Part shown: piece after piece, positions 1 through 23,252 of the stretch
Layout: every line of letters starts with the position of its first letter
Numbering within the stretch: position 1 is the stretch's first letter
IMG/VR virus record: IMGVR_UViG_3300020463_000143
Coordinates: 1-23,258 of that record
Source of the DNA: a virus
Direction: 5' to 3' (one strand)
DNA length: 23,258 bases
Made by a program: the position numbers and the translations under genes
The notes under the pieces: generated by a model
What the model saw: the letters and a program-made list of their open reading frames with translations, nothing else
Told to the model about the DNA's origin: nothing
Databases searched by the model: none

Positions 1-506
1 AATCTACGGGCCGCTTCACGCTTTGCACTTTTTTCTTTGTACATTACATAGTTGCTTAACCTGCCACTTTTGCCAGGCCACTTTGCAAATATTTTTTGCA
101 TAACATTATTTTGTTGCCAATGAGGAAAATCAATATCTACATCAGGTAAATCATCTCTCAATGGGTTTAAAAATCTTGCCAACGGTATTTTCCATTTTAT
201 AGGATCAACATCAGTAATGCCTAATAGGTAGCAAACTAAACTACTACCAGCACTACCACGTGTCATATGTGTAATATCTTCAGTTAATTTTAATACGTCG
301 CAAATTGTAATGAAATAGTCTGTGAATCGAAGTTTAATAATAATTTCTAGTTCTTCGATTAACCGAGTTTGATACTCGGGTTTGGATGGTATTTGCCTTA
401 TAAATCTGCCTAATATGTTTTCTATCTGAGCCTTAGCGTCTTTTGGTATCTTCATTGTTGCCTCAATATGCCTTAAGTTGCCTATCACACCGAAGTGTGC
501 AAACAT
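1..506 (-). CDS. DnaE-like DNA polymerase III alpha fragment, N-proximal palm part (runs off window)
   Basis: This is the first 168 residues of a gene that continues past position 1. Seen: a helical lead-in (YQTRLIEELEIIIKLRFTDYF), then TRGSAGSSLVCYLLGITDVDP at about residues 82-102, and RFLNPLRDDLPDVDIDF at about 111-127. These match the DnaE palm signatures GRGSAAGSLVAY-LGITDIDP and FLNPER-MPDFDIDF; the first two Asp of PDVDIDF correspond to the catalytic pair. The PHP domain that normally precedes the palm is absent. The frame is the same as the helicase gene upstream and opens right after its TAG stop. The first ATG is at 506, but the in-frame codons before it (reading SQKFLIEHYVILN) look protein-like, so a rare ATT start or lost upstream sequence is possible. 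Family assignment is strong; whether it is an active polymerase is unknown. Confidence 0.8.
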   Translation of the reverse strand, partial: MFAHFGVIGNLRHIEATMKIPKDAKAQIENILGRFIRQIPSKPEYQTRLIEELEIIIKLRFTDYFITICDVLKLTEDITHMTRGSAGSSLVCYLLGITDVDPIKWKIPLARFLNPLRDDLPDVDIDFPHWQQNNVMQKIFAKWPGKSGRLSNYVMYKEKSAKREAARR

Positions 507-4177: not shown

Positions 4178-4533
4178 TCACCAGGCCCTGCTTCTTCACT
4201 TAAATCTTCTCTTTTATCAGGCACATCAGGATTTATTTCCCTATTATTTGCATCAGCATCAGGTAATGGATCCTTTTGATTTGCAATGTTTGGCCATTTT
4301 ACTGCCATATCTGTGTTAATTTTCATCCAATATTCTAATTCGGATCCTGCTATATCTGTGTCAGCAACAATAGCACCTGCAGGACACTCTGGCTCACATA
4401 CTCCACAATCAATACATTCATCTGGATTAATTGCTAAAAAATTTTCACCTTCATAGAAACAATCAACTGGACAAACACTTACACAATCTGTATACTTACA
4501 TTTTATGCAATTGTCAGTTACCAGATAAGTCAT
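4174..4533 (-). CDS. fdxA: FdxA-type 7Fe ferredoxin ([3Fe-4S][4Fe-4S])
   Basis: Small soluble electron carrier. Seen: [17 protein letters not shown] at the N-terminus, then [26 protein letters not shown] and VKWPNI, the standard FdxA layout. Cys9, Cys17 and Cys50 fit the 3Fe-4S cluster; Cys21, Cys40, Cys43 and Cys46 fit the 4Fe-4S cluster. The 119-aa length and the tail ending GPGD resemble alphaproteobacterial FdxA, which suggests capture from a host. The ATG at 4533 is chosen because GAGG sits 6 nt upstream; the frame opens earlier (4569), but that extension lacks family similarity. It overlaps the 3' end of the DnaE-like gene by 20 nt, so it is co-transcribed with replication genes. Likely an auxiliary metabolic gene; the redox partner is unknown. 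Confidence 0.93.
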
Positions 4534-5107
4534 TGTATTCCTCACAAAGTAAATTAATATGTACTGCAACTAAGTGTGCATATGCTACTGCGTGAGCTTT
4601 TTTAAAGTAGTATCCTCCATCTTCTGGTTTATTCCATACTGTTTGTGCTATTTCTTTCCATGGTTTATTTTGCAAATGTGCTTTTGCTGGGCGAATAATA
4701 CTCAACATCATTGCCATTCTTGGAATACTATCAGGCTTCATACTACAAATTAAATCATAGTAATTACCTATATGAATAACCTTTTCACAAAATTCTTTAC
4801 TACGCCATAAAAGTTCCCATAATGGCTCTTTGTTTGATAACTCATCTAAGTGTTGTGGACTTTTTACTTTTTGATATACTGCTACATTTAATAAATCAAG
4901 TTTAAAGTATCCACGATCCTCAGCAGTTTTATAATCAATAGTTGCAATACCAGTTACTGGATCTGTTGGAATATCGATATAATATACGCCAGTATTATGT
5001 TTTTTAATTACTCCATGTTCAGACATCATAGCAGGTGTACCAGGTAAAACGTTAAGAAGATTATCTCTACTAGCAAAGTCTAAATCAACGTCAGGTAGTT
5101 TACTCAT
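4514..5107 (-). CDS. Compact DnaE-like DNA polymerase III alpha fragment (palm/fingers)
   Basis: 197 aa related to the catalytic centre of bacterial Pol III alpha. Seen in order: PDVDLDF at residues 5-11 (catalytic Asp pair); a [13 protein letters not shown] segment, equivalent to the HAAGVVI region; [18 protein letters not shown] at 59-74, where Asp71 fits the third catalytic Asp (KFDFLGL); [19 protein letters not shown] at 123-141 (LKPDSFEDL-A-LAL-RPGP); and [18 protein letters not shown] at 167-183 (F-KSHA-AYA). PHP, OB-fold, clamp-binding and tau-binding regions are all missing, so it is about one sixth the usual length of about 1100 aa. It starts at ATG 5107, overlaps the CHCC gene by 8 nt and is followed by fdxA. 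It could be a split polymerase subunit, a decoy or repurposed domain, or a remnant; the intact frame and conserved Asp residues argue against simple decay. Confidence 0.82.
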
Positions 5108-11809: not shown

Positions 11810-11985
11810 ATTCTGTTCTCCACTTCTTTTATATGTTTACATTTACGATATGCTATACAATTACAATCAAATCCTCTGTCATACATTGTTACTGTATATT
11901 CATCGCCCTTACTACCAGTTATTGGCCATTTTACGCCAACAAATGGGTGGTCTTTTGTATTGATTACTTCCGATGGGTGAGCCAT
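11794..11985 (-). CDS. SWIM-type zinc-finger small protein
   Basis: 63 aa. The C-terminal half carries FDCNCIAYRKCKHIKEVE, i.e. Cys-x-Cys-x5-Cys-x-His, matching the SWIM zinc-finger pattern CxCx(n)CxH. The N-terminal half (PFVGVKWPITGSKGDEYTVTMYD) resembles the short beta-strands that normally precede SWIM fingers. Such domains bind DNA or proteins. Start ATG 11985 overlaps the previous stop by one base (TAATG), indicating coupling to the 118-aa gene. Confidence 0.82.
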   Translation of the reverse strand: MAHPSEVINTKDHPFVGVKWPITGSKGDEYTVTMYDRGFDCNCIAYRKCKHIKEVENRICGSS

Positions 11986-12341
11986 TATGCCGCCAACTTT
12001 AATGATGGTGCTAGTGGAGTAAATCCAAACGAGTCAACTACTGAAGCATTACCTTCTGCGTCAACAATAATGTCTCCAACACTGATGCTATGCATCTTAT
12101 CCAATCGTGTAATACGATCCTCAGGACCAATGTTACCAACTTCAAACACATGATTCAAATCATCAGCAACAACTTCTGCTACCTTTGTGTAACAATCATG
12201 TTGTACACCAACAGTGACTTTACCAAACATTGCTTCTTTGTGGGCTACTGCCTTAACATGACAATCCCAACCTTCTTTGTTAATAAGGTTGCTAAGGTCT
12301 TTGTCAATAACAATCTGATAAACACTAAAAATTTGAACCAT
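11985..12341 (-). CDS. Conserved-type phage protein (118 aa)
   Basis: 118 aa, no named function. The second half, RLDKMHSISVGDIIVDAEG followed by VVDSFGFTPL, is a pattern (M-H-S-x-SVGD-ii--...DS-GF) that recurs in small phage and plasmid proteins of the YodL type; I recognise the pattern but not a mechanism. It has AGGAG 7 nt before ATG 12341, and it is the first gene behind the promoter at 12401-12374. It leads a three-gene unit with the SWIM protein and the 41-aa membrane peptide. Confidence 0.75.
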   Translation of the reverse strand: MVQIFSVYQIVIDKDLSNLINKEGWDCHVKAVAHKEAMFGKVTVGVQHDCYTKVAEVVADDLNHVFEVGNIGPEDRITRLDKMHSISVGDIIVDAEGNASVVDSFGFTPLAPSLKLAA

Positions 12342-12373: not shown

Positions 12374-12401
12374 AAAATAGCATATATACTAGATCTGTCA
12401 A
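12374..12401 (-). promoter_or_regulatory. Sigma70-type promoter with extended -10
   Basis: Minus strand TTGACA (12401-12396), 16-nt spacer, TATTTT (12379-12374) preceded by TGC (extended -10). An alternative TATAAT lies a few bases further. It lies 33 nt before the ATG at 12341, right after the lipoprotein gene stop. Confidence 0.7.
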
Positions 12402-12405
12402 CCTA

Positions 12406-12534
12406 TTATTTTAATTTTTCAGAAATCTTTTTCTTTGACCATTCAGCGGCATCAGTAACATCTTTGCCCATACCGCCAATAGTGCCACAAGCACTAAGTG
12501 ATACAACAGTCAATAAAACAAAAAAACTTTTCAT
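12406..12534 (-). CDS. Entericidin-like small lipoprotein (42 aa)
   Basis: 42 aa, shorter than the usual annotation cut-off. It begins MKSFFVLLTVVSLSAC: one Lys, a hydrophobic stretch and a lipobox L-S-A-C with Cys16 as the lipidation site. The mature part GTIGGMGKDVTDAAEW then a Lys-rich end has the 'C-NT-x-G-x-G-x-D' layout and amphipathic helix of entericidins, short bacterial lipoproteins linked to lysis/antidote activity. It would be exported by Sec and anchored in the periplasmic face of a membrane. Ribosome site GGGAG is 7 nt before ATG 12534. It lies between a 28-aa membrane peptide and a promoter. Possible roles: envelope modification, superinfection exclusion or lysis; none is shown. 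Confidence 0.78.
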   Translation of the reverse strand: MKSFFVLLTVVSLSACGTIGGMGKDVTDAAEWSKKKISEKLK

Positions 12535-12664: not shown

Positions 12665-12692
12665 AATATAGCACAAATACAGATCATGTCAA
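12665..12692 (-). promoter_or_regulatory. Sigma70-type promoter with extended -10
   Basis: Minus strand TTGACA (12692-12687), 16-nt spacer, TATATT (12670-12665) preceded by TGC. The -35 lies inside the last codons of the alarmone hydrolase gene. It would drive the 28-aa membrane peptide and the lipoprotein. Confidence 0.75.
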
Positions 12693-13187
12693 CCTTTTTA
12701 TTTGCATTTGTGCAATTTTGTATAGATCAGTTTGCTTTACACTATCTAGCATTCCATCAAGTATTAACTTTTTCTCTGCTAAAAAGACTTTGGCAAACCC
12801 TTTGTCATGCTCTACAATACTAATTGTGTTATTAATTAGATCTGCTAACTTGACAATTTGTGCATCGTGTGGTGCATTAAATGTATGTTTTCTATCTATT
12901 GCTTTACGAACTGCACGATTACCATCTGTCATCTTACTTTGATCAGTTAACCAAAACACCAAATCTGCAACTTGAGTACCAAATTTTATAGAAATTTGAT
13001 CTAATGTCACATCAGTATCTTCAACTACATCATGCAACAATGCCGCAACCTGTTGTGCTTCTGTTCCGCCATGTTGCCTTACAAGGTCGGATACTGCAAT
13101 AGGATGCACAATGTAAGGCTCGAAAGTATATTTCCGAACCTGTCCATCGTGTGCTTTTGTAGCAAATTTTAGTGCTTTATCTAGCAT
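12684..13187 (-). CDS. MESH1/SpoT-type HD-domain (p)ppGpp hydrolase
   Basis: 167 aa, the size of single-domain small alarmone hydrolases, which remove the 3' pyrophosphate of (p)ppGpp using Mn2+. Seen from ATG 13187: AhDGQVRK with His13, EPYIVHPIAV with His28, AALLHDVVEDTDVT with His52-Asp53 and Glu56-Asp57, FGTQVADLVFWLTD, and VKLADLINN with Asp116 and Asn120. This is the full SpoT/MESH1 metal and substrate set; there is no synthetase domain. The frame extends to a TTG at 13223, but AGGAAA 7 nt before ATG 13187 and alignment to the family favour the shorter start. It is followed by tiny envelope genes. Likely role: lowering the host stringent signal during infection (inference). MESH1 relatives can also act on NADPH, an alternative. 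Confidence 0.88.
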   Translation of the reverse strand: MLDKALKFATKAHDGQVRKYTFEPYIVHPIAVSDLVRQHGGTEAQQVAALLHDVVEDTDVTLDQISIKFGTQVADLVFWLTDQSKMTDGNRAVRKAIDRKHTFNAPHDAQIVKLADLINNTISIVEHDKGFAKVFLAEKKLILDGMLDSVKQTDLYKIAQMQIKRLT

Positions 13188-13195
13188 ATTATTTC

Positions 13196-13549
13196 CTAGT
13201 TTAAGTAAAGTGGTCCTGTCCAATTAATGGCATAACCACCTTCAATTATATTACCACGTGCCGCATTACGAGCTGGTGCATTGTAACCAGCGGCTTTAAG
13301 TATATCACCTTTTTTGAAAAGTTTATCTTTATCAGTGTTTACAACAAAACCCCAAACACTACCTTTTTCGTTGTATATCTTAACATACTTACTACCTACT
13401 TTGTAAGTGATGTTTTCTTTGAACCGGTTAAACATATCAATCTTTGTTTTACTTTTTTCAGTTTCACCAGCGGCTTTGGAACACTGTCCTTGCCAAATAG
13501 CATAATCGTTAACAATATCTTCAATAAGTGTTTCAATTTGCTTTTGCAT
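13196..13549 (-). CDS. Hypothetical protein (117 aa)
   Basis: Not recognised. 117 aa with an N-terminal helix (QIETLIEDIVNDYAIWQ), a basic middle (AAGETEKSKTKIDMFNRFKENI) and a strand-rich C-terminal half (KYVKIYNEKGSVWGFVV, FKKGDILKAAGYNAPARNAARGNII). The GDILKA-x-Y-APA-N-ARGN segment looks conserved in style and could be a small nucleic-acid or nucleotide binding loop. GGAG is 7 nt before ATG 13549. It is the first gene behind the promoter at 13607-13580, and the alarmone hydrolase follows after 8 nt, so the two are probably co-expressed. Confidence 0.75.
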   Translation of the reverse strand: MQKQIETLIEDIVNDYAIWQGQCSKAAGETEKSKTKIDMFNRFKENITYKVGSKYVKIYNEKGSVWGFVVNTDKDKLFKKGDILKAAGYNAPARNAARGNIIEGGYAINWTGPLYLN

Positions 13550-13579: not shown

Positions 13580-13607
13580 ATAATAGCATTATATACTGTT
13601 CTGTCAA
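13580..13607 (-). promoter_or_regulatory. Sigma70-type promoter with extended -10
   Basis: Minus strand TTGACA (13607-13602), 16-nt spacer, TATTAT (13585-13580) preceded by TGC. It sits just downstream of the terminator at 13644-13621 and 31 nt before ATG 13549. Confidence 0.75.
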
Positions 13608-13620
13608 CCTCTTTGGTCAT

Positions 13621-13886: not shown

Positions 13887-13915
13887 ATTATACACAATTT
13901 ATGTAATTAAGTCAA
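13887..13915 (-). promoter_or_regulatory. Sigma70-type promoter
   Basis: Minus strand TTGACT (13915-13910), exactly 17-nt spacer, TATAAT (13892-13887). The -35 overlaps the stop codon of the FkbM methyltransferase gene. It would drive the 63-aa gene at 13859. Confidence 0.8.
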
Positions 13916-14757
13916 GTACTTTTTTTAATCCTATTAAATACCCTTTGAAACATTTTTGTATGATTATCGTCAAAACCTTCGACAGGTTCGAGTATTTTGT
14001 CAATTTCAACTATTGGTGCTTTTTCTTGCGGACATGCTAGTACATTTACTACACCACTATTGGCAAATATGTTAACTGGATTTCCAAAATAGTTATATGG
14101 ATTGTAATTACGAACTGGTAACCACCACAGTAAATAATTTTTAGGATTAAGTTGTTCCCATACTTTTTCAATATGTGGCTGGCTATTATTTACTTCTATT
14201 AACATGCTTGGTCTATGCTTTGTTATTGTTTTTTCAGCACCTGCTAAAACTTGTGGCTCAAAACCTTCCACATCAATTTTAATAAAATCAACTCTATCAA
14301 AAGGCAGTTTATCAATAGGTACTGTAGGTACTGCTTGATAGTTTGATTTTGGATGTCCTTCTATTAAACTACATTCTCCATAATTGCCTGGCTCCGTAGG
14401 ATCAAAAACACTTATAAAACTGTTGCCTAGTCTATTACTCACTGCATTTGAATATACTTGTACATTTTTACATCTATTTTGTTTAAGGTTACGGTGTAAC
14501 AGTTGTCGATTAAATTCAACTGGTTCAAAACTATGTACTTTGCCTGTGAATGCATGTTTACTAAACCATACAGTGTGTAATCCTAAGTTGGCTCCAACAT
14601 CAAGTACAATATAGTTTGGTTGCATTAATAAATCCATAATAAGGAATTCATTTTCGCAGTATTCACCGTATATATCTAAACTTTTTCCTATGAACATATC
14701 ATTTGTAGAAAAACTAAAAATTCCGTGCTTACATCTTTTTGTTAAAATTTTACTCAT
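13912..14757 (-). CDS. FkbM-family SAM-dependent methyltransferase
   Basis: 281 aa. The FkbM layout is clear: IVLDVGANLGLHTVWFS at about 50-66 (SAM motif I), GKVHSFEPVEFN at 72-83, NAVSNRLG, and VDFIKIDVEGFEPQVLAGA in the second half, where FkbM proteins keep IDVEG-E--VL-GA. These enzymes O-methylate sugars or other small metabolites. Start ATG 14757 overlaps the nucleotidyltransferase stop by 8 nt; the frame opens further upstream (14793), but that part overlaps and lacks similarity. With its two upstream neighbours it forms a glycan/metabolite modification unit. The acceptor is unknown. Confidence 0.88.
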   Translation of the reverse strand: MSKILTKRCKHGIFSFSTNDMFIGKSLDIYGEYCENEFLIMDLLMQPNYIVLDVGANLGLHTVWFSKHAFTGKVHSFEPVEFNRQLLHRNLKQNRCKNVQVYSNAVSNRLGNSFISVFDPTEPGNYGECSLIEGHPKSNYQAVPTVPIDKLPFDRVDFIKIDVEGFEPQVLAGAEKTITKHRPSMLIEVNNSQPHIEKVWEQLNPKNYLLWWLPVRNYNPYNYFGNPVNIFANSGVVNVLACPQEKAPIVEIDKILEPVEGFDDNHTKMFQRVFNRIKKST

Positions 14758-15508
14758 GACGTTCAATATCTGCTTCATTACATATGTCACCAATTTGTAC
14801 TTCTATAACTTTACAACTTTCTGAAGTTATGTTACATGGCTGGTGCCATTGCATTTTATCTATTGTATGAGGTGTGCAATGTGCATCCAACTGTATTCTC
14901 CATTTTGGATTCTTAATCATGCAAGATCCTTGTACTACATTCCATCTCTCAGCTCGATGCTTATGACGTTGCATACTTAACTTTCCTCCAGGATATATTT
15001 CTAGTTCTTTAACTTTATACCCAGCACCTTGATCAATTACTCTATACCAACCCCACGGTCTTTCAATAATTTCACCAGGCCATTTTGCAAGTATCCAACT
15101 ACTACTGTTCTTTTTTTCGCTACCACCAACCCCAAACACAAATTCTACTTGTGGGTGTCCTCCGTAAACTTTTAATTCTGGTATATCTTCAGCAGTACGA
15201 TCACCTCCATTTGCAAAAATAATTTTTTTGTCGTGTGCTGACGTACACATTAATTTAAAAATTGCACCACAACTACTTCCGTCAGAGTCATCAAAAGATA
15301 CAGTTCCATCAACCATTTGCAGGTTTTGAATAATTTGAATCCTTTCTTCAAATGGTAGAAATGGTTTACCTTTTTTACGAATAAGCCAGTCGTCAGAATT
15401 TATTCCAACAATTAACTCGTCGCCAAGTTTTTTTGCTGAATTAAAATATTCAATGTGTCCAGAATGTAAGGGATCAAACCCGCCTGTAACTAAAACTATT
15501 TTTGTCAT
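14750..15508 (-). CDS. Nucleotidyltransferase-cupin fusion (cytidylyltransferase + type II mannose-6-P isomerase-like)
   Basis: 252 aa with two domains. Residues 1-140 are an RfaE/TagD-type cytidylyl- or adenylyltransferase: TGGFDPLHSGHIEYF with the HxGH site at 15-18, LIVGINSDDWLIRKKG, and PFEERIQIIQNL; the usual C-terminal ISSTxxR-type motif is replaced by KKNSSSWILAKW. Residues 149-252 are a cupin like the C-terminal domain of type II mannose-6-phosphate isomerase: RPWGWYRVID, GYKVKELEIYPGGKLSMQRHKHRAE with His182, His184 and Glu187 as metal ligands, WNVVQG, and VIEVQIGDICNEADIER. The fusion suggests activation of a sugar or polyol phosphate plus isomerisation or epimerisation of the same substrate. 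It overlaps the FkbM gene. Substrate unknown. Confidence 0.85.
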   Translation of the reverse strand: MTKIVLVTGGFDPLHSGHIEYFNSAKKLGDELIVGINSDDWLIRKKGKPFLPFEERIQIIQNLQMVDGTVSFDDSDGSSCGAIFKLMCTSAHDKKIIFANGGDRTAEDIPELKVYGGHPQVEFVFGVGGSEKKNSSSWILAKWPGEIIERPWGWYRVIDQGAGYKVKELEIYPGGKLSMQRHKHRAERWNVVQGSCMIKNPKWRIQLDAHCTPHTIDKMQWHQPCNITSESCKVIEVQIGDICNEADIERHE

Positions 15509-15558
15509 ATCAATAGTATTTAACTAAAGCCGAGCTATAATTTGTGAAAGGTGATTTG

Positions 15559-16314
15559 TTAAAAAGTACTATAGTCTAATGATTGGTAATCTAGCCATCT
15601 TAGCAATAAACCTTTGTTTGTAAGATAATTGTACTTTTGAAGTTGTTCTTGGCACGAGTCGGGTAATAAATCATTATACTCTGCTAGTGGGCAATCGCCA
15701 TGATTGTATACTTCGTCTGTGTCTTTATAAACTATTGCACTAATAATATTAGTGCCTGGTTGTTTTGTAAAAAATCCATCATTACAATTAAATCCACTTA
15801 GCACTAGCATATAAATTAAATGTATCATAGTAATACTATGTGGTGCTTCTTGGTATATCCTATAATCAGGATCTCCATAAAACATATTCGAAGTTGTAGG
15901 AAAACTTAATGCTAACATACCACCGTCAGCACAAAATTCATTCATCTTATGTAAAAACTTTAGTGGATCTTGTGCAGTATGTAAAGTGTTATGTGTCCAT
16001 ACCACATCAAACTGTTTTTTAAAAGTAACTGTGTTCCAATCTTCAAATTGAAACTTTAAGTTATCTGGTATCTTATATTCTTTATTAATATTATCCTGTA
16101 TGTCTAAACCTGTCACTTGGATATTTAAAAGTTGTGGACTTTCTTCTGCTCCATCTGTAGCCGTTGCCCACCACAAAGCATCATGACCTGTTCCGCAACC
16201 AACATCAAGTACTGTACTAATACTTTCCATAAATTCGCCAAAAGTACTTAATCCCCATAGCATATTTAAACTATGCGAACGGCTTGCACTATCGTTGTTC
16301 TGTAAAAAATCCAT
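15559..16314 (-). CDS. Class I SAM-dependent methyltransferase
   Basis: 251 aa. SAM motif I TVLDVGCGTGHDALWWA at about 34-50; VTGLDIQDN (motif II acidic residue); LKFQFEDWNTVTF; FDVVWTHNTLHTAQDPLKFLHKM (motif IV) and GGMLALSFPTTSN (motif V). This is the Methyltransf_11/23 arrangement. The acceptor is not evident; a C-terminal helical section replaces known substrate lids. It is the first of three genes (with the nucleotidyltransferase-cupin and FkbM) that look like an envelope-sugar or small-molecule modification set. Start ATG 16314 overlaps the upstream helical gene by 26 nt. Confidence 0.87.
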   Translation of the reverse strand: MDFLQNNDSASRSHSLNMLWGLSTFGEFMESISTVLDVGCGTGHDALWWATATDGAEESPQLLNIQVTGLDIQDNINKEYKIPDNLKFQFEDWNTVTFKKQFDVVWTHNTLHTAQDPLKFLHKMNEFCADGGMLALSFPTTSNMFYGDPDYRIYQEAPHSITMIHLIYMLVLSGFNCNDGFFTKQPGTNIISAIVYKDTDEVYNHGDCPLAEYNDLLPDSCQEQLQKYNYLTNKGLLLRWLDYQSLDYSTF

Positions 16315-19625: not shown

Positions 19626-19823
19626 TTATTGTAATCCTGCTAATTTTAGCATTCTTTGCTTGAAGTCTTCTTCTTCTTTTACTGCAATATCTGCTACTCC
19701 GTCACCATCTATGTCAACCATTACCCAGTTATCCTGCATATGATTCATAGAGTCATATTTGCAATCAGTTGTTGGTTGTCCTAGCATATCATCGCAATGT
19801 TTGCATTTTAGTGAATACATCAT
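19626..19823 (-). CDS. Small Cys-rich protein with EF-hand-like loop and LAGL tail (65 aa)
   Basis: 65 aa, function unknown. The N-terminal CKHCDDML-x6-C could bind a metal with CxxC plus Cys21. Near residue 38, DIDGDGVAD matches the EF-hand/dockerin Ca2+ loop DxDxDGxxD. The protein ends EEDFKQRMLKLAGLQ, almost the same as the end of the upstream large protein (GDAFKQRMLELAGLT). Start ATG 19823 (ATGATG) overlaps the large gene stop by 4 nt, so the two are translated together. The shared tail suggests a common partner or targeting signal. Confidence 0.75.
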   Translation of the reverse strand: MMYSLKCKHCDDMLGQPTTDCKYDSMNHMQDNWVMVDIDGDGVADIAVKEEEDFKQRMLKLAGLQ

Positions 19824-22800
19824 GTTAACCCCGCTAATTCTAACATTCGTTGTTTAAAAGCATCGCCATCTTCTTTAGACTCAAAAGATTTACGAGCTTG
19901 ATCTTGCATATCAGCAAGTTCATCATTGTTAATTACTCGGCCAAGATTGGCTAAAGCCTGTCTACAAGACTCGATAAATTCTTCGACATCGTCTTCGTCA
20001 TCTATCGCTCTGACTCCAAAGAAAGCCTTTTTGGTTGCTTCATCTCCAAAAAGTATAACTTCTGCACGGAAATCGTTAAAGTCGTAGTATACATCATCTA
20101 CTGGAACTTCATCTGCACCTAATGCATGGTCTAAAAATTCTTCAATATAGCCTTGGATATCATCTTTGATTTGCTTTGGATCCTTGTTCATTCCATTCCA
20201 AGTTTCTTGTGAAATGTCATCTAAATCAAGATCATCATTTTCAGCATGTGCTAGTTGATCTGGTGTAAGTTGAGTTCTAATATCAAAGCCGTCGTCTTCT
20301 TTAACTGTGCTTTCGACTTTACTCTCTAGTAATCCAAGATTGTCTAGCTCATCACTTATGTACTGTACTGGATCTCCATCTCTACCTTTCATTGTACCAT
20401 ATGGCATATCTTCTGAATAGTAATCAAATAAATCTAAATATAAATCAGTATCGTATACGTCCATTAAATCACCACTCATTTGCAATTTTTTGGCTTCTGC
20501 TGGATATTTTTTCATTATATCCATGACTTGATCTTTTTCCATGTTTCTTTGTGCTACTTGTGGGTAATCAGTATCATCTTCGTCTAATCCAAAAGCAAGG
20601 CTTTTCAGTGATCTTAATTCTTCGTTGTACTCTGCATCATTTTCTGATTCGCCAATATCATACATAAAAATTTTACTGTATACATCTGGATGATCTTGCT
20701 TGATTGCATATTTGATATCTTGCATAAATTTTTCTTGTGCTGAAGTATCTCCTGGACCTCCATATTGACCTGCATGAACAATATCATCACCATCAGCATT
20801 AGCATTTTTCATAAGATTTTCTAATGCTTCGATTGAATCCTCAATATCATCAATCATAATATATGAATAATCAAACGGATCACCTTGCATTAATTCTTTT
20901 TCTACTTCTTCATCACTCATGCCTTTTGCTTTGAGTTCTGCTTTAGCCTCAGCCTCTCCATCATAGTACTCTTTTTGATCTGCTTTATAGGACATTAAAA
21001 GTTTTTCTAATGCTGGCTTTACATCAGCTAGTTTGACACTGGCTCTATCAGGTACTTTCATTGCCTCTTCACGACCAGTATTAGTAGCTTCTTCAGAATC
21101 TTCTACTTGAACTTCTTCTGACATATCAACATCTCCCTCTGCTATGTTTAATAATCTCCTGGCTAAATCTTTTGGCATAGTTGGATAGGACATAATATTT
21201 TTCTTAAGCCAATTTGCAATAATTGGTCTTGCATCTCCATTTGGGTCTTTTTCGCCAGCCGCGTATAAATCATCATATAAACTGTCATCACCTATTCCAA
21301 CACTAATTGCATTTGTTGCATCATCACCATCTGGTCCTAGTGGAAGTGGTTTTTTCATTAATTCTTCAATAGCATCAACATTTTCTACTGTATCTGGAAT
21401 TGCCCATGTGCCTTCGACAATAGTGTTAGCCCAATTTTCAAATTGTTCTGATTCTGTTTTATCTTTGCCGTATAAGTCTTTCTTTGCTTTATTAATTTTT
21501 TTAGTTTTACCTTTAAGATACTTCATTGCAAGACGCATAGAAGCCGCACGTTGTTCTGCATTATCCTGGTCAAGTGTTGCAATTGCATTACCCATTGCAT
21601 CATCTGCAACATTTACTTCTAAGTAGTCTAATACACTTTTTACAATGTTGCGATTCTTTTGTGCTATATTCTTTTCTTCGTCTTTGTCAAACTTTTTAAC
21701 TTTTATCATATCAAGTTCTGATTTAAGTTTTTGAACCTGATCTGGTACATCAAGTATTTCAATGTCATCGTTTGATTTAGAAAAAGCAATTATATCATTT
21801 GTGTTTGCTTGTTTTTTCGCATCCATGTCTTTTTCAAATTCTGCATAATCATCAGCTTCTTGATCGGCTACTTTGTTATTTTCCATTGCTTTTAATCCTC
21901 GGGCTAAACTTGGTAATACACTATCAACAACATTGTCTTTATGTATTCTTACTAATTTTGTACGAATTTCATCTAAATCTGCTTGTTCAATACTTTCTTC
22001 TGTAGGCTCGTATTGCTTAATATAACTTGCATAACCTTTTGGTCCTGACAGTGTTTTCAGTGTAGAATGTAATCCCATTGCACGTTCACGTGCTTGTTCT
22101 ATAATTTTTGTTGCTTCGTCTTGTTCTGCAAAGTTGTCTGCACGTCTAAAAGATTTTACAAACTTTTTTAAATCTACAACTTCTTGAACTAATTCAAGTA
22201 TATGTTGTCCAACTTCATCTTCATATACACCACCTTGGTTAACATGTTGTGCTAACGCTCTTGCACCTGCTAGATAATTATGTGGTAATTTTGTTCTTTC
22301 CTTGGCACTATTTTCAACATATAAACTGTGTATGTATCGTGTACGACTTCCACGCTTTTCTTCATCAACTGGCTTTTGGTGCTTAACTACTACTCTTACT
22401 TCGCCAATGTTTTGATAACTTGTTTTTAGACTTCCGTGCATCTTGCCTTCCAATGTAATTTCTTCGACGTTATTTGACGTCATATTTGTTTTAATGTAGG
22501 CATAGTCTTTCTTGTCAAGTTGTTGTTTTCCAATGTTACGCACATCGAAACCCATTAAGTTGCGTTTTGCAAAATAACGAAGTTCTTTTAAAAACCCATA
22601 CCAGTCTTTCTTATCATTATATCGCATATCTTCAGAAATATTATTGTTATAGTAAACTACGAGAGTTGAAGGATCAACAATGTTTACTGTTACGTTTCCA
22701 TAGGTATTACCACTAGCTGAATATTCTAGTGTAAATATTCTTCCAGTACTAGCATCAATTGTACTAAGTGCTTGTTCGTTTGCAATAGTTAACTTATCAA

Positions 22801-22855
22801 ACTTTTTGCCTAATACGGCACTTAAATCTTTTGCTATTTTGTTATGTATTTCCAT
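19820..22855 (-). CDS. Large acidic protein of unknown function (about 1011 aa)
   Basis: No enzyme domain recognised. The N-terminal ~230 residues are strand-rich with basic patches (TLEYSASGNTYGNVTVNIVDPS, WYGFLKELRYFAKRNLMGFDVRNIG, KTNMTSNNVEEITLEGKMHGS, and EVRVVVKHQKPVDE followed by RTRYIHSLYVEN). Residues ~230-560 are charged helices, probably coiled coil. From ~560 on there are repeated blocks of Asp/Glu-rich helical sequence with DDxxD patches. It ends FKQRMLELAGLT. The ATG at 22855 (MEIHNKI) is preferred because it begins 4 nt after the preceding stop; an in-frame ATG at 22891 would overlap the previous gene by 32 nt, and neither has a clear ribosome site. Size, acidity and a terminal tag suggest a scaffold, prohead-core or internal virion protein, but this is inference. 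Confidence 0.75.
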   Translation of the reverse strand: MEIHNKIAKDLSAVLGKKFDKLTIANEQALSTIDASTGRIFTLEYSASGNTYGNVTVNIVDPSTLVVYYNNNISEDMRYNDKKDWYGFLKELRYFAKRNLMGFDVRNIGKQQLDKKDYAYIKTNMTSNNVEEITLEGKMHGSLKTSYQNIGEVRVVVKHQKPVDEEKRGSRTRYIHSLYVENSAKERTKLPHNYLAGARALAQHVNQGGVYEDEVGQHILELVQEVVDLKKFVKSFRRADNFAEQDEATKIIEQARERAMGLHSTLKTLSGPKGYASYIKQYEPTEESIEQADLDEIRTKLVRIHKDNVVDSVLPSLARGLKAMENNKVADQEADDYAEFEKDMDAKKQANTNDIIAFSKSNDDIEILDVPDQVQKLKSELDMIKVKKFDKDEEKNIAQKNRNIVKSVLDYLEVNVADDAMGNAIATLDQDNAEQRAASMRLAMKYLKGKTKKINKAKKDLYGKDKTESEQFENWANTIVEGTWAIPDTVENVDAIEELMKKPLPLGPDGDDATNAISVGIGDDSLYDDLYAAGEKDPNGDARPIIANWLKKNIMSYPTMPKDLARRLLNIAEGDVDMSEEVQVEDSEEATNTGREEAMKVPDRASVKLADVKPALEKLLMSYKADQKEYYDGEAEAKAELKAKGMSDEEVEKELMQGDPFDYSYIMIDDIEDSIEALENLMKNANADGDDIVHAGQYGGPGDTSAQEKFMQDIKYAIKQDHPDVYSKIFMYDIGESENDAEYNEELRSLKSLAFGLDEDDTDYPQVAQRNMEKDQVMDIMKKYPAEAKKLQMSGDLMDVYDTDLYLDLFDYYSEDMPYGTMKGRDGDPVQYISDELDNLGLLESKVESTVKEDDGFDIRTQLTPDQLAHAENDDLDLDDISQETWNGMNKDPKQIKDDIQGYIEEFLDHALGADEVPVDDVYYDFNDFRAEVILFGDEATKKAFFGVRAIDDEDDVEEFIESCRQALANLGRVINNDELADMQDQARKSFESKEDGDAFKQRMLELAGLT

Positions 22856-22859
22856 ATTA

Positions 22860-23252
22860 TTATTTATCCGATATTCTTTGTCTTGCGGCATTTAAAATTG
22901 CCAGGTTTTGCTGAATCAACACCGGAACTGGCGTTGAAAAACCGCCATAACAAGGATGACTATACAACCATTCTTCATGGTCTCTACAGACATTCAACCT
23001 GTTATGCACTTTACATAACAACCTGCCACTAGCATGTTTGTGTATCCACATTCTAGCAACATTATCTTTTAACGGCGTAATGTTTTGTTCACCCTTCCAT
23101 TTTTGGACGTCTATCTTTTGTCTTTTCCAATAAGACTTACTCCAAGGACAAACACTTATGATAGAAGCAAAGTACTCGCTCCAATCTTCTTTACTTACGC
23201 TTTCCGCCTTTTCCGCCACGTTTTGCCATTTTCTGACTCCTTTTCTATACAC
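22860..23252 (-). CDS. Conserved-type phage protein (up to 130 aa), start uncertain
   Basis: Not assigned a function. Strong W/P/H-rich features: EDWSEYFASIISVCPWSKSYWKRQKID-x-QKW, LLCKVHNRLNVCRDHEEWLYSHPCYGGFSTPVPVLIQQNLAILNAARQRI. The ordered aromatic and Cys/His residues suggest a defined small fold; I recall this type from marine T4-like phages but no role. The frame has no ATG: GTG at 23252 or GTG at 23219 are possible, and it stays open to the window end. A strong ribosome site (GGAG) lies 7 nt before an ATG at 23229 in another frame, which reads MAKRGGKGGKRK then stops, so the true N-terminus may be reached by a frameshift. Confidence 0.65.
   Translation of the reverse strand: MYRKGVRKWQNVAEKAESVSKEDWSEYFASIISVCPWSKSYWKRQKIDVQKWKGEQNITPLKDNVARMWIHKHASGRLLCKVHNRLNVCRDHEEWLYSHPCYGGFSTPVPVLIQQNLAILNAARQRISDK
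23191..23229 (-). other. 12-codon basic micro-ORF overlapping the 130-aa frame
   Basis: ATG 23229 preceded by AAAGGAGTCAGAAA reads MAKRGGKGGKRK and then TAA. The start signal is better than any in the overlapping frame. It may be a leader peptide, a frameshift donor for the 130-aa protein, or a sequence error splitting one gene. Confidence 0.45.

What the first reader, a model, noticed from the sequence alone, without database searches (positions are those of the whole stretch)
12684..13187. Phage-encoded MESH1/SpoT-type alarmone hydrolase with full active site
A complete HD hydrolase set (His13, His28, His52-Asp53, Glu56-Asp57, Asp116, Asn120) with no synthetase domain, in an early-promoter region. 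Nutrient-starved ocean hosts have elevated (p)ppGpp, so degrading it would restore host rRNA and nucleotide synthesis during infection. This is distinct from the MazG route proposed for marine phages.
Basis: partly seen in the sequence, partly recalled or inferred. Interest (0 to 1): 0.7.

Follow-up and report, generated by a model that had tools for sequence, protein, structure and literature searches.

The report
Phage small alarmone hydrolase gene
A large tailed phage carries an intact, conserved gene for a small enzyme of the SpoT/MESH1 kind that probably removes the bacterial growth-stop signal (p)ppGpp or similar 3'-pyrophosphates early in infection; hundreds of other phages carry related genes, so it is a clear new member of a known kind rather than a new system.

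Summary
An intact 167-aa gene lies on the minus strand (13187..12684) and encodes a small alarmone hydrolase (SAH): Pfam HD_4 and TIGR00691 match; the HDxxED motif, metal ligands and base-pocket residues are invariant in aligned relatives; an AlphaFold2 model (pLDDT 97) best matches human MESH1 in the PDB. There is no synthetase domain, and no synthetase gene in any of 28 virus records searched. The gene keeps its place in ten or more contigs of one T4-like jumbo-phage clade (relatives up to 306,714 bp), under purifying selection. It lies behind a conserved strong sigma70-type promoter (GGTTGACA-N-TGYTATTAT), so early expression is plausible. The physiological story is only partly supported. 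Some 306 phage records carry relatives, many from nutrient-rich hosts, so an ocean-starvation explanation is not needed. The best-studied relative (PaSpo of phage SSU5, 47% identical) is reported to remove 3'-pyrophosphate from tRNA and neutralise toxSAS toxins, so counter-defence is a serious rival to stringent-response relief. Other SAHs also hydrolyse (p)ppApp, NADPH or CoA. The 306-kb relative carries MazG as well. Verdict: new member of a known kind; enzyme class about 0.93 certain, substrate and role open.

The parts
12684..13187 (-). Small alarmone hydrolase (SAH) gene, 167 aa, ATG at 13187; active site R18 K19 H28 H52 D53 E56 D57 K113 D116 N120
   Evidence: AlphaFold2 pLDDT 97.1; Foldseek top match MESH1
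13194..13197 (-). AGGA Shine-Dalgarno-like site before the SAH start, overlapping the stop codon of the upstream gene
   Evidence: sequence read; close gene junction seen in the relatives too
13196..13549 (-). Upstream gene of the same operon, 117 aa, unknown function (weak PHROG_5014, PHROG_818, DUF7717 matches); directly upstream of SAH in every syntenic relative long enough to show it, but also found at 53% identity in a jumbo phage without SAH
   Evidence: AlphaFold2 model poor
13583..13609 (-). Promoter of the two-gene operon: GGTTGACAGAACAGTATATAATGCTAT(TATT), -35 TTGACA with extended -10 TGCTATTAT
   Evidence: same motif upstream of the operon in L002, L003, L071-L073, L075-L078, L149
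13625..13647 (-). Intrinsic-terminator-like hairpin upstream of the promoter (end of the previous unit)
   Evidence: the same kind of hairpin in relatives
12668..12694 (-). Second copy of the promoter motif, overlapping the 3' end of the SAH gene and serving downstream small genes
   Evidence: not kept at this exact place in L002
12549..12635 (-). 28-aa predicted membrane peptide
   Evidence: translation
12406..12534 (-). 42-aa lipoprotein-like peptide (LSACGT lipobox), 71% identical in L002; resembles entericidins but below the Pfam cut-off
12377..12403 (-). Third copy of the promoter motif, before the 118-aa gene 12341..11985

Best explanation
The gene encodes a stand-alone, metal-dependent (probably Mn2+) 3'-pyrophosphohydrolase of the small alarmone hydrolase family. 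Shown: family, fold, complete active site, absence of synthetase, conservation in a jumbo-phage clade, and a strong sigma70-type promoter. Inferred: the phage makes it early, using host RNA polymerase, and it strips the 3'-pyrophosphate from host (p)ppGpp, and very likely (p)ppApp too, lifting the alarmone brake on transcription, translation and nucleotide synthesis so that phage replication can proceed in a slow-growing or stressed cell. Enzyme class about 0.93; early expression about 0.75; (p)ppGpp lowering as the main benefit about 0.45.
For: HD_4, TIGR00691 and PHROG_990 matches. Solved relatives by sequence are SAHs, Rel, SpoT and MESH1. HDxxED, metal ligands and RK/N/S base-pocket positions invariant or conservative. 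AlphaFold2 pLDDT 97.1, pTM 0.91, with every PDB match at E<=0.001 being MESH1, an SAH, lmo0812 or Rel/SpoT. Syntenic in at least ten contigs down to 48% identity. dN/dS 0.095 and 0.184 in two comparisons. Composition matches neighbouring phage genes. Promoter conserved upstream of the operon in all ten relatives examined; in the 306,714-bp relative the motif occurs 13 times on one strand and 0 times in the reversed control. Bacterial SAHs with the same active site hydrolyse pppGpp, ppGpp, pGpp and pppApp (PMC9765508).
Against: No activity is measured. SAHs with intact HD motifs differ in base preference: the Methylobacterium enzyme cleaves (p)ppApp but hardly (p)ppGpp (PMC7644958), so the substrate cannot be read from the motif. 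The host and its (p)ppGpp status are unknown. Early timing is inferred from promoter sequence alone. The nearest studied relative was characterised against toxSAS toxins.
Confidence: 0.5

Rival explanations
1. Counter-defence: the enzyme reverses the products of toxic small alarmone synthetases (toxSAS, CapRel-type), that is 3'-pyrophosphorylated tRNA CCA ends or (p)ppApp, so that an abortive-infection response fails.
For: 47% identical to PaSpo of phage SSU5 over residues 2-149. [quoted passage not shown] SSU5 and PVP-SE1 phage SAHs relieve FaRel toxicity (Jimmy et al. 2020 as cited in PMC7644958). The family spans phages of many hosts, including nutrient-rich ones. Early-type promoter.
Against: No toxSAS is known in the (unknown) host. 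The PaSpo experiments used plasmid co-expression, not phage infection. Substrate specificity may differ at 47% identity.
Confidence: 0.33
2. Cofactor phosphatase: the real targets are NADPH or CoA (the MESH1 side-activities), shifting host redox or acyl metabolism.
For: The top fold match is the MESH1-NADPH complex. Bacterial XccSAH is also an NADPH phosphatase (PMC9765508). MESH1 is a CoA phosphatase (PMC13221220).
Against: XccSAH is over 1000-fold less efficient on NADPH than on ppGpp (kcat/Km 3.6e2 against 5e5 per s per M). Potrykus et al. state that NADPH did not seem to be hydrolysed by MESH1 in their coupled assay (section heading). No special link between phages and NADPH phosphatase is seen in the locus.
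Confidence: 0.07
3. An HD-family nucleotidase with an unrelated substrate (dNMP or dNTP phosphohydrolase) used in nucleotide salvage.
For: The HD superfamily is broad, and phages encode such enzymes (weak structural matches to a phage dATP triphosphohydrolase and a dNMP phosphatase).
Against: It has HDxxED and the RK..PY..H motifs typical of RSH hydrolases. All significant PDB matches are RSH-type; the nucleotidase-type phage proteins score only E 0.1-0.4.
Confidence: 0.03
4. Antitoxin half of a phage-encoded toxSAS toxin-antitoxin pair.
For: Some SAHs are antitoxins next to a synthetase, such as ATfaRel (PMC11782079).
Against: No RelA_SpoT synthetase domain in the window record or in 27 related virus records, including contigs of 306,714 and 357,559 bp; the controls rang in 11 of 14 genomes. 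The conserved neighbour upstream is not a synthetase.
Confidence: 0.02

Closest known systems
PaSpo, SAH of Salmonella phage SSU5 (and SAH of phage PVP-SE1)
   Same: Phage-encoded stand-alone SAH, same active-site residues, 47% identity over 89% of the protein
   Different: The SSU5 protein is 213 aa with a longer C-terminus, and SSU5 infects enterobacteria; its activity on toxSAS products is measured, the window protein's is not
MESH1 (human HDDC3; PDB 5vxa, 3nr1)
   Same: Best PDB fold match (TM 0.87 by query length, 30% identity) with the same HDxxED site
   Different: Sequence places the window protein with phage SAHs, not with MESH1; the MESH1 nicotinamide-ribose motif was not tested here
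Bacterial SAHs: XccSAH (Mesh1-L), Pseudomonas aeruginosa SAH (6yvc, 6z3n), Corynebacterium RelH (7qod)
   Same: Same family; the solved ones have the same fold
   Different: 22-25% identity in the PDB matches of the last two; host-encoded; substrate ranges differ among them
SAHs of jumbo phages (XacN1, 201phi2-1, Psa21, D6) and of Pseudomonas phage Adele
   Same: Phage SAH without synthetase; 42-53% identity for the listed jumbo phages; Adele's SAH is discussed with alarmone removal in mind (PMC12846349)
   Different: Different phage lineages and gene neighbourhoods; Adele's protein was not compared here
Cyanophage MazG
   Same: Was proposed to lower (p)ppGpp in marine hosts
   Different: Unrelated family; purified S-PM2 MazG neither binds nor cleaves (p)ppGpp (PMC6850273)

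Membership tests
Small alarmone hydrolase (SAH; RSH superfamily) | RSH-type HD domain | tested here: met
   HD_4 60.2 bits against cut-off 27.2; TIGR00691 hydrolase part 9.8e-27; Foldseek MESH1/SAH/Rel/SpoT only
Small alarmone hydrolase (SAH; RSH superfamily) | Intact HDxxED and metal ligands (H, HD, D) with RK and N of the base pocket | tested here: met
   Invariant in alignments of relatives
Small alarmone hydrolase (SAH; RSH superfamily) | No synthetase, TGS or ACT domains in the protein | tested here: met
   167 aa, one domain only
Small alarmone hydrolase (SAH; RSH superfamily) | Hydrolysis of (p)ppGpp and/or (p)ppApp with Mn2+ | not testable with these tools
   needs an enzyme assay
MESH1 subgroup | Groups with MESH1/Mesh1-L in sequence phylogeny | tested here: inconclusive
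   Window clade lies among phage SAHs, apart from the MESH1, RelSeq and Lmo0812 segments, but only short reference segments were available; structure is closest to MESH1
PaSpo (SSU5-like phage SAH) | Near full-length similarity to PaSpo of SSU5 | tested here: met
   47% identity over residues 2-149; subgroup support in the tree is weak
PaSpo (SSU5-like phage SAH) | Neutralises toxSAS and removes tRNA 3'-pyrophosphate | not testable with these tools
   shown for SSU5 PaSpo only (PMC11559606)
toxSAS-SAH toxin-antitoxin pair | Adjacent toxic synthetase gene | tested here: not met
   No PF04607 in the window or in 27 related records
MazG pyrophosphohydrolase | MazG domain (PF03819) | tested here: not met
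   Pfam shows HD_4 and HD, not MazG; a separate MazG gene exists in the 306-kb relative

The most novel reading that the evidence does not exclude
In this clade of T4-like jumbo phages the SAH is a conserved, early-expressed counter-defence enzyme whose selected function is to repair 3'-pyrophosphorylated tRNA (or degrade (p)ppApp) made by host toxSAS/CapRel-type anti-phage toxins, rather than to relieve starvation.
Probability: 0.3. Interest if true: 0.6.

Novelty: new member of a known kind. Interest (0 to 1): 0.38.

Why it matters
Marine phages were long said to lower host (p)ppGpp through MazG, but the one purified cyanophage MazG tested does not touch (p)ppGpp. A phage gene with a genuine alarmone-hydrolase active site, kept in place across a whole clade of jumbo phages and behind an early-type promoter, is a much better candidate for alarmone removal during infection and makes the question directly testable. 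It also bears on whether phage SAHs exist to fight starvation signalling or toxSAS-type immunity.

Tried and rejected
Nucleotide-level search of 8 kb around the gene in 50,697 phage records: no match. Rfam and tRNA searches of the window: nothing. PADLOC models for SAH and neighbours: nothing. Toxin-antitoxin pairing rejected: no synthetase in 28 records. Recent capture from a host long RSH not supported: tree and composition. The bacterial genome collection gave only 4 distant relatives, 36-49%, so donor and host remain unknown. Entericidin identity of the 42-aa downstream lipoprotein not confirmed: no match in the window itself and one below the Pfam cut-off in L002. Structure of the upstream partner gene too uncertain for a fold search (pLDDT 69.8). 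Reading base preference (G or A) from single residues was considered and dropped: Potrykus et al. state that the responsible residues are not evident. Jimmy 2020 and Ahmad 2023 could not be opened in the library.

Full report
What is there. The finding is on the minus strand. An ATG at 13187 opens a 167-aa frame that ends at 12684; the plus strand of the same stretch is full of stops. An AGGA sequence lies just upstream, overlapping the stop of the preceding 117-aa gene (13549..13196), so the two look like one operon.

What it is. Pfam HD_4 (2.6e-16), NCBIfam TIGR00691 RelA/SpoT (9.8e-27, hydrolase part only) and PHROG_990 (1.3e-36) match. Solved structures found by sequence are lmo0812, Rel, RelA, SpoT, MESH1 and SAHs. 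In an alignment of 66 loci and four reference rows, the RSH-hydrolase signature (QxRK, PYxxH, HDxxED, K..D...N) is invariant or nearly so; in the set of 33 aligned sequences R18, K19, H28, H52, D53, E56, D57, K113, D116 and N120 are invariant. An AlphaFold2 model has pLDDT 97.1 and pTM 0.91. Its 46 PDB matches with E up to 0.001 are all MESH1, SAHs, lmo0812 or Rel/SpoT, led by human MESH1 (E 8.4e-9, TM 0.87). HD nucleotidases of phages score far worse (E 0.1-0.4). So the protein is a small alarmone hydrolase with a complete site and no synthetase.

Which phage. The window has UvsX, gp32, UvsW, DnaB-type helicase and primase genes, plus pieces of a bacterial-type DNA polymerase III alpha (gp32, UvsW, helicase and primase by reading the translations). 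The nearest UvsX proteins in isolates are those of jumbo phages Atu_ph07, Phosso, CBB and GAP32 (67-69%). Related virus contigs sharing this gene order reach 306,714 bp. The window record itself is a 23,258-base virus fragment.

Conservation. The order FkbM methyltransferase - small gene - 117-aa gene - SAH - (small genes) - AAA ATPase is kept in L002 (=L070), L003 (as far as the contig reaches), L071-L073, L075-L078 and L149, and partly in L069, with SAH identity from 87% down to 48%. The next clade out (L079-L095, AAA 51-56% identical) does not have it at this place, although one 357,559-bp member has an SAH elsewhere. dN/dS of the SAH is 0.095 against L002 and 0.184 against L003, like its neighbours. 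GC and third-position GC match the phage. In the tree it groups with these relatives and with phage and contig SAHs, not with RelSeq, MESH1 or Lmo0812 (only short reference segments were available and several branches are long).

Expression. Three copies of GGTTGACA-N-TGCTAT lie at 13609, 12694 and 12403 on the coding strand, with 0.01 expected by chance. The copy before the 117-aa gene/SAH operon (-35 TTGACA, extended -10 TGCTATTAT) is present at the operon start in every syntenic relative examined. In the 306-kb relative the stricter motif occurs 13 times, all on one strand, and 0 times in the reversed control. A consensus sigma70 promoter of this quality in a phage is normally early (own knowledge); timing is not measured.

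How it most likely works. The enzyme class fixes the chemistry: metal-assisted removal of pyrophosphate from a 3'-pyrophosphorylated nucleotide. A bacterial SAH with this site cleaves pppGpp, ppGpp, pGpp and pppApp efficiently and NADPH weakly (PMC9765508), but substrate choice varies among SAHs (PMC7644958). Two roles fit. Relief of the stringent response is the simpler one. Counter-defence is the strong rival: the SAH of phage SSU5, 47% identical, is reported to remove the tRNA 3'-pyrophosphate installed by toxSAS FaRel2 (PMC11559606) and was co-expressed in the purification of CapRel (PMC9712102). Relatives occur in 306 phage records from many hosts; in a sample of 60 spread over the ranking, 31 records are at least 200 kb, one of them a bacterial record. 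This breadth argues against an ocean-specific cause and for a general benefit, often seen in large phages. No synthetase is found in any of 28 records searched, so it is not half of a phage toxin-antitoxin pair in what is sequenced.

MazG. Cyanophage MazG does not bind or cleave (p)ppGpp (PMC6850273). The SAH is a different and better candidate for that role, and the 306-kb relative carries both genes, so they are not alternatives.

Novelty. Phage SAHs are known and annotated, and two have been used experimentally; a 2025 phage paper discusses alarmone removal by a phage SAH (PMC12846349). What is added here is a conserved early-type cassette holding an SAH in a clade of uncultured jumbo phages. 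That is a new member of a known kind.

Noticed in passing
window 13609, 12694, 12403 (minus strand); 13 sites in the 306,714-bp relative of L078: A clade-wide promoter motif, AAAGGTTGACARAT-N-TGYTATTAT, on the coding strand and absent in the reversed control; it would allow the early genes of these jumbo phages to be mapped.
   Followed up: partly
window 3-506 and 4514-5107 (minus): Two separate pieces match a bacterial-type DNA polymerase III alpha (PF07733; PHROG_405 and PHROG_11778), split by helicase, primase and other genes.
   Followed up: no
window 12406-12534 (minus): 42-aa lipoprotein-like peptide next to the SAH, kept in L002 (71%), looking like an entericidin but not reaching the Pfam cut-off.
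   Followed up: partly
window 19626-19823 and 19820-22891 (minus): Two neighbouring proteins (65 and 1023 aa) end in nearly the same C-terminal tail, DFKQRMLKLAGLQ and AFKQRMLELAGLT; the long one is an acidic protein matching a virion structural family (PHROG_13484). The shared tail may be a targeting or processing signal.
   Followed up: no
window 13912-16314 (minus): Sugar-modification cassette: FkbM methyltransferase, a cytidylyltransferase fused to a mannose-6-phosphate-isomerase-like cupin, and a class I methyltransferase, conserved with the SAH locus across the clade.
   Followed up: no
window 13196-13549 (minus): The 117-aa gene upstream of the SAH belongs to a conserved phage family with motif KGDxLKAA.NxPA.N..RGN...WTG; it also exists in a jumbo phage without an SAH (L092), so it is not an obligate partner.
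   Followed up: partly
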